From contig NZ_CP113797.1 in the NCBI RefSeq assembly GCF_026802175.1, forward strand, positions 4,937,026-5,001,025: DNA of 64,000 nt, read 5' to 3'. The position numbers and the translations under genes are program-made. The stretch comes from Thermocoleostomius sinensis A174 (lineage in GTDB: Bacteria; Cyanobacteriota; Cyanobacteriia; Elainellales; Elainellaceae). Position 1 is the stretch's first letter, and every line of letters begins with the position of its first letter. The notes under the pieces are model-generated. The model had not been told where the DNA came from and did not search any database. It saw only the letters and a program-made list of their open reading frames with translations. This document shows, piece after piece, positions 13,437-51,465 of the stretch.

Positions 13437-14648
13437 CTACCAAAGTGCACGTACTCCGCCTGTCGCATCATCAGTTGTGCCACCGCCAACGCCGTTTCTG
13501 TTGGGAGCGGGGGCCGGCACAGAGGGGCTAGGTGCGGCTGGACGAGTCGGACGTTCGATTGGGGCTTGGGTCGAGGGAGGAGGAAGGAGGGGTTCGCGAG
13601 GACGGCTAACCGGGGGAATGCTGGGTTCGGTATCGTCTTCGTCATCTCTCACATTGCTGACATCGTCCACAGTTGTATCTTGTCCAGCGTCTTGTTCGGC
13701 AAAACCGGGGCGGGAAATGCCCTCAAACGCATCACCCGTTTCGCCAATTCCGGAATCGCCTCGATTGTCCCGATCGTCGGTCGTATCCTCGGCTTCATCA
13801 CCTTCGGTATCATTTTGATCGGTATCTTGATCGGAATCCTCGCCACGATCAGCCTCCTCGCCGCGATCGCCCCCTTGCTCACTGTCTTGATCGCTACCCC
13901 GATCGTCGCCTTGGTTGTCATTTTGATTACCAGTATCTCGCTCACCATCTTGCCCACGATCGCCACCTTGATTGCCGCTATCATGACCGCTATCTTGCCC
14001 ACGATCGTCCCCTTGATCGGTATCTTGATTGCCGCTATCATGACCGCCATTCTGGCTACTGTCTTGTCCACGACCATCACCTTGGCTATCACCCCGATCA
14101 TTTCCCCGATTGGAATCATTGTTGCCTTGTTCATTCCCCCGATCGCCCCCTTGATCAGTGTCTTGATTGCCGCTATCATGATCACCTTGATCACCGCGAC
14201 CTTCGTTACCACCGCGATCGTTGCCTTGACTATCACTCTCATGTCCACCGCGATCGTTGCCGCCTTGATTGCCGCGACCTTGCCCGCCTTGGCTACTGCC
14301 ATCATGACCCTCACCACCTTGACCACCGCTATCCTGACCACCATTACCGCCTTGGTCATTGTCACCGTTATTGTCACCGTTGCCGCTTTGATCGCCACCA
14401 TCCTGACTGCCATCTTGGTCGCCCTGACCACCATTGTCACCACTCTGACCGCCATTACCACCATCACCAGATTCGCCAGTACTAATTAAAAAACTGTCTT
14501 GCTCTGTAGCATTCAGTTGACTGAAGCGAGTTGATTCGGAATCGATCGATGATAAGGCTGGCAATCCAAATAGAAAGGTCCCAACACTAGAAATCCCAAT
14601 AATAACTGCGAGTTGTGTAATTGATTTCTTTCTGCGATCTGAATTCAT
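13437..14648 (-). CDS. Exported Gly/Asp/Asn/Gln-rich low-complexity protein
   Basis: About 403 residues. The ATG at 14648 is chosen because an AAGGA lies 7 nt upstream, rather than the first in-frame codon at 14666. Residues 1-35 are basic then hydrophobic (SITQLAVIIGISSVGTFLFG), a signal or anchor. Residues about 60-300 are almost only G, D, N, Q, S, R and E in irregular units such as GGDRGNEQGNND and HDSGNQDTDQGDDRG. The last ~80 residues are Pro-rich (PREPLLPPPSTQAP). It should be disordered and highly hydrophilic, perhaps a cell-surface or matrix component or a calcium/water binder. No RTX nonapeptide pattern is evident. The tandem DNA leaves several long overlapping frames open, but only this one has a start, a signal sequence and a ribosome-binding site. 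Confidence 0.7.
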   Translation of the reverse strand: MNSDRRKKSITQLAVIIGISSVGTFLFGLPALSSIDSESTRFSQLNATEQDSFLISTGESGDGGNGGQSGDNGGQGDQDGSQDGGDQSGNGDNNGDNDQGGNGGQDSGGQGGEGHDGSSQGGQGRGNQGGNDRGGHESDSQGNDRGGNEGRGDQGDHDSGNQDTDQGGDRGNEQGNNDSNRGNDRGDSQGDGRGQDSSQNGGHDSGNQDTDQGDDRGQDSGHDSGNQGGDRGQDGERDTGNQNDNQGDDRGSDQDSEQGGDRGEEADRGEDSDQDTDQNDTEGDEAEDTTDDRDNRGDSGIGETGDAFEGISRPGFAEQDAGQDTTVDDVSNVRDDEDDTEPSIPPVSRPREPLLPPPSTQAPIERPTRPAAPSPSVPAPAPNRNGVGGGTTDDATGGVRALW

Positions 14649-14666
14649 TGTCATTTCCTTGCACAC

Positions 14667-49566: not shown

Positions 49567-50028
49567 CTAACTTTTGCCAAATTTACCTAACGCAACCGCC
49601 TGATCTTCCAAAATGGCTTTCACCGCTTCTGATGTGGCTAACGCCTTGACCCCAGCGGCAGTAATTTCAACAGGAATAGCGCCCAAGGCGTCTGGTCGTG
49701 TGGCTAATAGACATCCACCAAACCGTTGCAAAATGCGGCTGATGCTGTCTAACGATCGACCCGACGACTGTCGTATAGCTTGAATTCGGGCGCGACGTTC
49801 ACGATGGGATTGGCGACCGTGAGGCATAGAACTGGAATGGGACGCCGGATTGGAACGAGTGACACTCTTGAGTGAAGCGGAATCTGTAGATTGAGACGTA
49901 TCGAGTTGCGACGTATCTGATTGAAGCAGTACCATGACCCGCACCCGTTGCTGTGGCTCTAGGCGGTTCAATCGAGTGGCAAACTCAGGGCTGATTTTGG
50001 GTTGATTCAATCCATTTAGCTTATGCAT
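49567..50028 (-). CDS. Small protein with subtilase prodomain (I9)-like half
   Basis: 153 residues, no signal peptide. The C-terminal half (ALGAIPVEITAAGVKALATS, then EAVKAILEDQAV) resembles the subtilase propeptide pattern also seen in the peptidase 70 bp upstream (PIASVEVTRKTLEVLADQPN, then VVAVLPNQKI). The middle is Ser/Arg-rich and probably disordered. Inhibitor_I9-like proteins can act in trans as chaperone or inhibitor. That role is inferred from similarity and position. It is the second gene of a two-gene unit with the peptidase. Confidence 0.6.
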   Translation of the reverse strand: MHKLNGLNQPKISPEFATRLNRLEPQQRVRVMVLLQSDTSQLDTSQSTDSASLKSVTRSNPASHSSSMPHGRQSHRERRARIQAIRQSSGRSLDSISRILQRFGGCLLATRPDALGAIPVEITAAGVKALATSEAVKAILEDQAVALGKFGKS

Positions 50029-50100
50029 GATCTCATCTCAATCTCATCCCAAGTGAATCGTCTCAGTACCAAAGTCAACGGGTTTAAAACCCGATCGCCA

Positions 50101-51465
50101 TTAGCTTAAGGCATCAAGCGCCGCCGTCGGTTGAATGACCCCGTGTCCCCAGCGATTGCAAGGACGAAGATCAACGCCATCTGGGTGACTGGCTGTTTCC
50201 TTCAGTACCTTTATGATATCGGTTGCGGAGGCAGTTGGATAGGCCGACATTAACAAAGCAGCTACTCCTGCCACATGGGGTGTCGCCATCGACGTGCCAT
50301 CCATGAAGTTATAGTCAAAGGTTCCATTGGAAAGCTGTACTGGGGGAATGCAAGAGCAGATCTGAACGCCAGGAGCCACCACATCGGGCTTTGTCACCAG
50401 TGCACTGCCTTCTTTGCCAGGAAATACGAGGCTTGCTCCGCTGCTGAAGAAAGTTACATCCACATCCCCAGATTCTAGCTTTTCGACGGCTCCTACTGAA
50501 AAGGCATTGTAGGCGTTGCCAGGCGAACTGCTGTTACCGTGATTTTCGTTGCCGATCGCCACAACGGGCAAGACGCTGTACTGGTGCAGCAAAATGTCTA
50601 GTACCTCGGCAAACAATGGTTCATAGTAATTAAATCCTAGTGACATGTTAATGATGTCTGCCCCTTGTTCTACCGCCCAAGAAATACCCTCCATCAACGA
50701 TCGCAGCGTTGCATCGCCCATTAACACCCCTGCCACCAACAGATTGGCTTGAGGAGCAACCCCAATGGAAATGCCGTTAGCCGTTTGTCCGCCTGCGATC
50801 GTGCCACAGACATGCGTGCCATGCTGTCCACAATCAAATGGCAAATCGGTCGTAATTCGTCGTCCCAATGGGTCAATCACTACAAATTCTTTGACGCGAT
50901 CATTGAGGGCGGGATGTGCCGCATACACCCCTGTATCTAGCACCGCTACATTAATGTCATGCCCTTGGGTGGTTTCCCACAATCGAGGGATCTCTAGATA
51001 ATTCAGGCCCCAGGTCAGCCCGTTTTGCTGCTCTTGATCCATGAGCGTTGAGTATTCCACCCGATGGGGACGGATGAGATGAATTTTTTGGTTGGGCAAC
51101 ACCGCCACCACATTCGGCTGGTCTGCCAAAACTTCTAAGGTTTTGCGCGTTACTTCCACCGAGGCGATCGGCAGCGTTCCCGTTCCAATGGGGTCTGCTT
51201 TCAGGGGTTGGTCAACATAGCCCAAGTCACGGCTAGCTTCTCGATAGCCCCGAACAACGATTTGGGCAACATTTTTTTGTAAAATAGCAATCTCACGGAC
51301 TTCATCCAAGCGCTGTTCCAACTCTTGCAATCGATCGCGAGACACCATGCCTTCAATTAAAGGCGCTTGATAGATCACAATGGCGTCGCGTTTGCTGTCG
51401 TCGCCACTATCAGCAAGAAACGGTTCAAATGCGGGAGAAATTTTTGCTTCGTTACGCAATGTCAC
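50101..51465 (-). CDS. Subtilase-type serine peptidase (S8 family)
   Basis: A 454-residue S8 peptidase with the full catalytic triad: Asp177 in VAVLDTGVYA, His215 in CGQHGTHVCG, and Ser392 in MDGTSMATPHVAG. The oxyanion Asn306 is in AIGNENHG. Residues about 25-130 are an N-terminal prodomain with an I9-like end (VAVLPNQKI). No signal peptide or cell-wall anchor is visible, so the site of action is uncertain: cytoplasmic, or released by lysis or another export route. It precedes a small prodomain-like gene on the same strand. Confidence 0.92.
   Translation of the reverse strand: MTLRNEAKISPAFEPFLADSGDDSKRDAIVIYQAPLIEGMVSRDRLQELEQRLDEVREIAILQKNVAQIVVRGYREASRDLGYVDQPLKADPIGTGTLPIASVEVTRKTLEVLADQPNVVAVLPNQKIHLIRPHRVEYSTLMDQEQQNGLTWGLNYLEIPRLWETTQGHDINVAVLDTGVYAAHPALNDRVKEFVVIDPLGRRITTDLPFDCGQHGTHVCGTIAGGQTANGISIGVAPQANLLVAGVLMGDATLRSLMEGISWAVEQGADIINMSLGFNYYEPLFAEVLDILLHQYSVLPVVAIGNENHGNSSSPGNAYNAFSVGAVEKLESGDVDVTFFSSGASLVFPGKEGSALVTKPDVVAPGVQICSCIPPVQLSNGTFDYNFMDGTSMATPHVAGVAALLMSAYPTASATDIIKVLKETASHPDGVDLRPCNRWGHGVIQPTAALDALS

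What the first reader, a model, noticed from the sequence alone, without database searches (positions are those of the whole stretch)
49567..51465. Subtilase paired with a separate I9-like prodomain protein, neither exported
The peptidase has its own I9-like prodomain, and the small gene behind it has a second such segment (VKALATSEAVKAILEDQAV versus EVLADQPNVVAVLPNQ). Neither has a signal peptide. Free I9 proteins are known as trans inhibitors of subtilases. A cytoplasmic protease with a dedicated inhibitor could be a controlled or self-killing switch. That last step is speculation.
Basis: partly seen in the sequence, partly recalled or inferred. Interest (0 to 1): 0.5.

Follow-up and report, generated by a model that had tools for sequence, protein, structure and literature searches.

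The report
Cytoplasmic protease with separate prodomain partner
A cyanobacterium carries a subtilisin-type protease that appears to stay inside the cell, next to a small protein that is a free-standing copy of the protease's own inhibitory domain; the pair recurs in distant bacteria, sometimes behind an immune-sensor-like gene, which suggests a protease kept off until a trigger.

Summary
Genes at 50101-51465 (subtilase, 454 aa) and 49567-50028 (153 aa), both minus strand, encode an S8 peptidase with an intact triad and a small protein homologous along its length to the subtilase's own prodomain (hhalign 97.8%, E 1.1e-12). The modelled small protein has the propeptide fold: 23 of the first 25 VIA rows are S8 propeptides or the free inhibitor POIA1. 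Neither has a hydrophobic leader (crude scan). In the window's family the pair co-occurs exactly (6 of 36 genomes both, 30 neither); it is also adjacent in one Methylomirabilota and two planctomycete MAGs. Selection keeps both genes. In the planctomycetes a NACHT NTPase gene directly precedes the pair; two genomes carry deleted remains of such an operon. Most likely the small protein is a dedicated trans-inhibitor keeping an intracellular protease latent, in some lineages as effector of an NLR-like system. Inhibition and defence are inferred; the complex model was too poor to judge. Against: two cyanobacteria have the subtilase alone, three genomes the small gene without it.

The parts
50101..51465 (-). 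S8 subtilase gene, 454 aa, GTG start, TAA stop, no hydrophobic leader seen
51061..51465 (-). subtilase's own I9-like prodomain (about residues 1-135), with the NQKIHLIRP tail
51427..51444 (-). KISPAF start motif of the subtilase, shared with the small protein
50104..51015 (-). subtilase catalytic domain (about residues 151-454)
   Evidence: Pfam PF00082 168-442; PDB relatives by sequence
50935..50937 (-). catalytic Asp177
   Evidence: invariant in the 9 rows (8 genomes); role recalled from subtilisin
50821..50823 (-). catalytic His215
   Evidence: invariant in the 9 rows (8 genomes); role recalled
50548..50550 (-). oxyanion-hole Asn306
   Evidence: invariant in the 9 rows (8 genomes); role recalled
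50290..50292 (-). catalytic Ser392
   Evidence: invariant in the 9 rows (8 genomes); role recalled
50029..50100 (-). 72-nt gap, in frame, with two in-frame TGA codons; a 6-pair stem-loop at 50079-50093 that is not shown to matter
49567..50028 (-). free-standing prodomain protein, 153 aa, probable trans-inhibitor
49981..49998 (-). KISPEF start motif of the small protein
49600..49950 (-). propeptide-fold core of the small protein (residues 27-143), with a poorly predicted loop at about residues 41-70

Best explanation
The two genes form a latent-protease module. The first makes an active-site-intact subtilase that stays in the cytoplasm and carries its own N-terminal prodomain. The second makes a free-standing prodomain of the same ancestry, which folds as a propeptide and most likely docks on the catalytic domain with its C-terminal tail in the active-site cleft, holding the protease off after, or instead of, its own prodomain. 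A trigger that frees the protease would then let it cut cell or invader proteins. In planctomycetes the module sits behind a NACHT NTPase, so there the trigger is probably an NLR-like sensor; in the window's cyanobacterium the sensor is unknown or absent. Shown: the pair, the homology, the intact triad, the selection, the recurrence; the fold is shown by homology and by a predicted model. Inferred: cytoplasmic location (from the missing leader), binding, inhibition, trigger, target.
For: Full-length homology of the small protein to the partner's own prodomain (control). Propeptide fold in the model, with matches to ProN-Tk-SP (Z 10.7), Tk-subtilisin propeptide (about Z 8) and the free inhibitor POIA1 (Z 7.5). 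Tree of 21 rows: all 10 small proteins on one side of a branch and all 11 prodomains on the other, support 100/100, which fits one old duplication. In 4 of the 10 small proteins the chain ends 7 residues after the conserved Asp of the EDQ motif, close to where a 77-residue subtilisin prosegment ends after its Asp71 (Asp71 from a passage of PMC6993865; length from the 1spb title). Exact co-occurrence in the family, 6 both and 30 neither of 36 genomes, in 4 genera. Adjacent on the same strand in L016 and in planctomycetes L018 and L020. dN/dS 0.16-0.22 for the small gene and 0.02-0.11 for the subtilase in three genome pairs. NACHT-subtilase-small order in two planctomycetes, with 2 bases between the first two genes and 3 or 12 between the last two; deleted remains of that operon in L019, and of NACHT plus small gene in G167. 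Free propeptide-like proteins inhibit subtilases in eukaryotes, and SUB1-ProM is encoded next to subtilase genes (PMC6993865, abstract and passages read).
Against: No inhibition data. The read-through chain model left much of the catalytic domain below pLDDT 50 (301-378 and 381-396 among others), so docking could not be judged. Foldseek gave no match at E <= 0.001 (best 0.087), and apart from the first row the VIA Z values (about 8 and less) sit near the level that the tool's note calls common. The small protein misses Pfam I9. The tail argument fails for 6 of the 10: the window's protein ends 11 residues after that Asp and five others 15 to 22 after it. Two cyanobacteria of one genus have the subtilase without the small gene. 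Three genomes have the small gene, or part of it, without an intact subtilase of this family (G421 and G425; G167, absent from the matches, where only 4 candidates a genome were scored), and in a fourth, G423, only a remnant is left, so the small protein may have other partners. The EDQ of the small proteins differs from the PNQ that all 11 prodomains keep at the matching place, so binding may differ.
Confidence: 0.62

Rival explanations
1. The small protein is mainly a folding helper (trans-acting prodomain chaperone) for the subtilase, and inhibition is a by-product.
For: Propeptides of mesophilic bacterial subtilases act as chaperones as well as inhibitors (start of the abstract of PMC10580911, search listing). 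The small protein is a homologue of such a domain.
Against: The subtilase already has a complete prodomain in cis, and two genomes keep the subtilase without the small gene.
Confidence: 0.15
2. The small protein is a decoy or substrate: the protease, once triggered, cleaves it, and a fragment or the loss of the protein is the signal.
For: The N-terminal extension and the loop between the first strand and the first helix vary greatly in length (proteins of 111 to 241 aa, some starts uncertain), and in the window's protein the loop is poorly predicted. The small gene evolves faster than the subtilase in all three pairs tested.
Against: Conservation peaks in the last strand and the EDQ motif, as expected for an inhibitor rather than a cleavage loop.
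Confidence: 0.1
3. A housekeeping intracellular protease (peptide turnover, stationary phase) with its inhibitor, unconnected with defence; the NACHT operon in planctomycetes is a later, local recruitment. This rival shares the inhibitor step with the best explanation and denies only the conflict role, so the two probabilities overlap.
For: In the window and the other cyanobacterial pair loci no NACHT gene of this type is adjacent (tblastn with the L046 NACHT, hit none of L039-L044); the NACHT profile hit 1 of 292 cyanobacterial genomes and not the window's own. Intracellular subtilisins held by an inhibitory propeptide are known (PMC6220982, abstract read).
Against: Scarce distribution (6 of 36 in the family; 4 of 386 in the phylum sample), gene neighbours that differ between the four genera on reading the ORF lists, an L016 copy closer to cyanobacterial G001 (71%) than the window's copy is (61%), and deleted remains look like a mobile, dispensable element.
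Confidence: 0.3
4. The small gene is a decaying duplicate without function.
For: Broken copies exist (L021 frameshift; G167 remnant).
Against: dN/dS 0.16-0.22 in three pairs (synonymous sites are near saturation in the third) and 19 invariant positions in 10 sequences from several phyla.
Confidence: 0.03

Closest known systems
MEROPS I9 stand-alone inhibitors: POIA1 (Pleurotus), yeast proteinase B inhibitor, Arabidopsis SPI-1
   Same: Small free proteins with the subtilisin-propeptide fold; POIA1 is among the fold matches (1v5i, Z 7.5). The three are named together in PMC6993865 (passages).
   Different: Those three are eukaryotic and, per that paper, lack significant sequence similarity; here homology to the partner's own prodomain is significant, the gene is adjacent, and the hosts are bacteria.
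Plasmodium SUB1-ProM
   Same: Stand-alone propeptide-like protein encoded next to subtilase genes and a potent selective inhibitor of SUB1 (PMC6993865, abstract and passages).
   Different: Eukaryotic, with a secretory signal, and not in an operon with a STAND NTPase (the last point recalled, not read).
Bacillus intracellular subtilisin Isp1 with inhibitor IPI; Planococcus ISP
   Same: Intracellular subtilase held by an inhibitor or an inhibitory propeptide (PMC3901451, start of abstract in the listing; PMC6220982, abstract).
   Different: IPI has an Ig-like fold and the ISP propeptide carries a LIPY/F motif; here an I9-like prodomain in cis plus a second one in trans.
IetAS anti-phage system and PADLOC model PDLC03014 'subtilase'
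   Same: S8 peptidases of defence systems; PDLC03014 is the best PADLOC match (E 5.4e-28) and IetS models follow (best E 1.7e-14), all over parts that lie mostly in the catalytic domain.
   Different: IetS models are about 750 to 855 positions long and only a part matches; no IetA-like ATPase is beside the window pair. Which system PDLC03014 belongs to was not shown by the call.
Bacterial NACHT (bNACHT) anti-phage proteins
   Same: The planctomycete operon has a NACHT NTPase (PF05729, E 1.2e-15); bNACHT25 and bNACHT32 defend through a nuclease effector (PMC12169576, passages).
   Different: In those two proteins the effector is fused; here the subtilase is a separate gene and a free prodomain is a third component. 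The window itself has no NACHT gene of this type.
Fungal NLRs with Peptidase S8, and HET-Q2 subtilase with gasdermin HET-Q1
   Same: S8 peptidases as parts of cell-death or NLR-like systems (PMC4986451, passage; PMC10989679, passages).
   Different: Eukaryotic; no free prodomain partner is mentioned in the passages I saw, and no gasdermin gene was noted beside the loci here (not searched for).

Membership tests
S8 subtilase | Peptidase_S8 domain above curated cut-off | tested here: met
   164.3 bits against cut-off 21.8
S8 subtilase | Asp/His/Ser triad and oxyanion Asn | tested here: met
   D177, H215, S392, N306 invariant in 9 rows from 8 genomes
[quoted passage not shown]
   AF2 model, mean pLDDT 78.6 with 73 of 153 residues at 90 or more; 23 of the first 25 VIA rows are S8 propeptides or POIA1, many being entries of one protein, Tk-subtilisin. 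A predicted, not a solved, structure
I9 propeptide-like inhibitors | Significant match to Pfam PF05922 | tested here: not met
   Window protein: none; 1 of 10 relatives, E 0.062. The subtilase prodomains also stay weak: 8 of 11, best E 0.0069. It is therefore described as a free prodomain homologue with an I9-like fold, not filed as an I9 member
I9 propeptide-like inhibitors | Inhibits an S8 peptidase | not testable with these tools
   needs an assay
Intracellular subtilisin (ISP) | Propeptide with LIPY/F motif | tested here: not met
   No LIPY or LIPF on reading the sequence; prodomain of about 135 aa. Motif taken from the abstract of PMC6220982
IetAS | Full-length IetS plus adjacent IetA ATPase | tested here: not met
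   Best IetS match covers residues 169-410 of 454 and positions 257-515 of 749; the direct neighbours are a KDPG aldolase and an AMIN protein
bNACHT / NLR-like system | NACHT gene in the locus | tested here: not met
   Not beside the window pair and no A3 match at E <= 1e-15 in the window's genome (6 of 21 candidates scored); met in the planctomycete loci
bNACHT / NLR-like system | Anti-phage activity | not testable with these tools
   needs a phage challenge
Type II toxin-antitoxin | Toxic protein neutralised by the protein of an adjacent gene | not testable with these tools
   needs co-expression; only adjacency is seen

The most novel reading that the evidence does not exclude
A bacterial immune protease module unlike the described ones: a NACHT (NLR-like) sensor releases a leaderless subtilase from a free-standing prodomain inhibitor that arose by one old duplication of the protease's own prodomain; the protease-inhibitor pair has moved between phyla and, in cyanobacteria, now works without its original sensor.
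Probability: 0.35. Interest if true: 0.75.

Novelty: new variant of a known kind. Interest (0 to 1): 0.55.

Why it matters
The stand-alone propeptide-like inhibitors named in the paper I read (PMC6993865, passages) are all eukaryotic. A bacterial one that is demonstrably the sister of its partner's own prodomain, encoded next to it and found in several phyla, gives a clean system for asking how a prodomain in trans competes with the prodomain in cis. If the NACHT link is functional, it adds a subtilase held by a dedicated inhibitor to the proteolytic effectors of bacterial NLR-like immunity, parallel to the S8 domains listed in fungal NLRs (PMC4986451, passage).

Tried and rejected
Decay without function was rejected by dN/dS. 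A phage or plasmid origin of the small gene found no support: tblastn with the window protein found nothing at E <= 0.01 in the plasmid and phage collections, and the IMG/VR scan confirmed none of 23 pattern matches. The 18 IMG/VR subtilases are distant (28-33% identity) and were not pursued; plasmid subtilases (15 records at E <= 1e-30) are at most 36.8% identical; plasmid NACHT proteins (79 records at E <= 1e-10) share only part of the protein at under 60% identity and were not followed. One NCBIfam match of the small protein (type III YscP, E 0.0057, far under its cut-off) and weak PDB and PHROGs sequence matches were taken as chance. G025 (E 0.0095, four stops inside) was dropped as spurious. 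G691 (E 4.4e-5, 45 positions inside a 409-aa frame) was not followed. The G191 and G296 matches are the prodomains of solo subtilases, not free proteins; the stretches behind those subtilases were read in three frames and no small partner was seen. Complex modelling through a read-through chain was inconclusive. A first alignment for it (A5) put the starts of small proteins on the subtilase prodomain and was replaced by A6, in which the small proteins of five loci (L009, L010, L011, L016, L017) were given only from their first helix on. No tRNA or Rfam match in the window. Promoter-like sites are at chance level (3 against 2.2) and terminator-like sites above it (6 against 2.6, sd 1.6); no claim is built on them. 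The mirror-tree correlation (r 0.90) is expected for linked genes and is not used as proof of interaction. A CARD-NLR paper (PMC13236601) was searched for subtilisin and subtilase and has neither.

Full report
Observation. They are in one frame, 72 nt apart, with stops between. The subtilase is a clear S8 peptidase (Pfam 164.3 bits) with D177, H215, N306 and S392 invariant in 9 aligned rows from 8 genomes (roles recalled from subtilisin). Neither protein has a hydrophobic leader by a Kyte-Doolittle scan, which is a crude test.

Homology and fold. Pfam does not recognise the window's small protein (1 of 10 family members weakly matches I9, E 0.062) and sees I9 in the subtilase prodomains only weakly (8 of 11, best E 0.0069). 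Profiles do better: 10 small proteins against 11 subtilase prodomains give hhalign probability 97.8% and E 1.1e-12 over 116 columns, including the shared KISPxF start; the same small-protein profile against a NACHT profile gives 0.2%. The small-protein profile also finds subtilase prodomains in genome searches (G030 E 2.9e-6, G296 1.5e-6, G191 1.4e-5). In a 21-row tree the small proteins and the prodomains fall on two sides of one branch with support 100/100, so one duplication before the spread is the simplest history; the root is not fixed and several end branches are long. The small protein was modelled at mean pLDDT 78.6 with the order strand, long helix, short strand, strand, helix, strand. 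Foldseek found no match at E <= 0.001, but its first four rows are S8 propeptide entries; in the VIA second look 23 of the first 25 rows are S8 propeptides or POIA1, many being entries of one protein, Tk-subtilisin, and the other two are a DAHP synthase and a mitoribosomal protein.

Recurrence. In the window's family 6 of 36 genomes have the small gene (a seventh match, G025, was dropped for four stops and E 0.0095) and the same 6 of 36 have the subtilase. They belong to 4 genera, and the gene neighbours differ between the genera on reading the ORF lists. Elsewhere the pair is adjacent in a Methylomirabilota MAG (L016; a transposase frame runs into its subtilase start) and in two planctomycete MAGs (L018, L020). 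Searches of other groups found little: 5 of 386 cyanobacterial genomes with the small profile, of which 2 are intact small genes, 1 a remnant and 2 prodomains only; 2 of 294 in the planctomycete phylum, one of them a doubtful partial match; 1 of 95, 1 of 199, 1 of 4 and 1 of 50, each being the genome that served as centre. In the large searches only some first-look candidates a genome were scored (10, 13, 41, 19, 4, 6), so these are lower bounds; all were scored. The subtilase profile hit 4 of 386 cyanobacterial genomes at E <= 1e-90: 2 with the small gene and 2 without. The small gene also occurs without this subtilase in G421 (near a contig end) and in G425 (frameshifted, behind genes that best match PADLOC PDC-M01A/PtuA and PDC-M01B), and as a remnant in G167. 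In all, 1791 of 2000 allowed genomes were searched.

Selection. In three genome pairs dN/dS is 0.022, 0.053 and 0.112 for the subtilase and 0.215, 0.157 and 0.203 for the small gene (the third pair is near saturation at synonymous sites): both are kept, the small gene evolving faster. The L016 subtilase is 71% identical to that of cyanobacterium G001, while the window's is 61% identical to G001, which points to horizontal transfer.

The third component. In L018 and L020 (whole contig: L046) a NACHT NTPase of 937 and 936 aa (in L046 PF05729 E 1.2e-15, and an N-terminal NNH1 match under its cut-off) ends 2 bases before the subtilase, and the subtilase ends 12 and 3 bases before the small gene. 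L019 retains 38 residues of the same NACHT (97% identical), the last 58 residues of the subtilase (93%) and an open small gene in that order. G167, a cyanobacterium, has residues 3-256 of the NACHT (40% identical) running into the end of a small gene. The NACHT N-terminal profile, which includes G167's own piece, hit 1 of 292 cyanobacterial genomes at E <= 1e-15, and that one is G167. A type IIG restriction enzyme lies beside the L018 operon and an MTES_1575 nuclease-fold gene beside that of L046. The window has none of this: the neighbours tested are a diacylglycerol kinase, an AMIN protein, a KDPG aldolase, a CAP protein, an 86-aa protein without Pfam match and a permease.

Mechanism. The best-supported reading is a dedicated prodomain-type inhibitor in trans that keeps an intracellular subtilase latent. 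Homology, pairing and selection are shown, the fold by homology and prediction; binding, inhibition and trigger are inferred. The attempt to see the complex, by folding the read-through chain with a 17-row alignment, gave mean pLDDT 60.8 and left most of residues 301-396 of the catalytic domain under 50, so the interface cannot be judged; it does show both prodomains with the same order of main elements. Where a NACHT gene precedes the pair, the protease is plausibly the effector of an NLR-like system. That last step rests on two related operons and two remnants, and on no experiment.

Known background. Stand-alone propeptide-like inhibitors are described for Pleurotus POIA1, the yeast proteinase B inhibitor, Arabidopsis SPI-1, TgMIC5 and SUB1-ProM (PMC6993865, abstract and passages read). 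The conflict-system survey PMC7159879 mentions subtilisin once, in NucA-trypsin systems (passages read). Fungal NLRs list Peptidase S8 (PMC4986451, passage read), and the fungal subtilase HET-Q2 activates a gasdermin (PMC10989679, passages read). Searches for subtilase with NACHT and anti-phage (0 papers), NACHT with peptidase S8, at least two of STAND NTPase, subtilisin and conflict system, free or stand-alone propeptides (of which 16 listed), bacterial NACHT with protease and effector (of which 12 listed), NACHT with subtilisin and phage and IetAS or subtilase with antiphage (of which 12 listed) showed no listed title or abstract start describing this combination. The library holds only openly licensed papers, and most of these papers were seen as listings only.

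Noticed in passing
L046 2312-5122 and L018 775-3588: NACHT NTPase, first gene of the planctomycete operon; the L046 protein has no PADLOC match at E <= 0.001.
   Followed up: partly
L021 2541-5331: Genes matching PADLOC PDC-M01A/PtuA and PDC-M01B, followed by a frameshifted copy of the small gene; no subtilase of this family in the genome at E <= 1e-30.
   Followed up: partly
L049 6775-7664: Remnant in which the start of the NACHT gene runs into the end of the small gene, as after an internal deletion.
   Followed up: yes
L047 7884-9215 and L048 7412-8743: Subtilases of the same family without a small partner, near PIN and DUF5615 genes.
   Followed up: partly
L016 2826-3755: DDE_5 transposase frame that overlaps the start of the subtilase, whose first 23 to 26 residues are not matched.
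   Followed up: no
window 13437-14666: 409-aa protein rich in Gly, Asp, Asn and Gln with simple repeats and no Pfam match at E <= 0.001.
   Followed up: no
window 50079-50093: Short stem-loop between the two genes on their strand; not shown to be conserved or functional.
   Followed up: no
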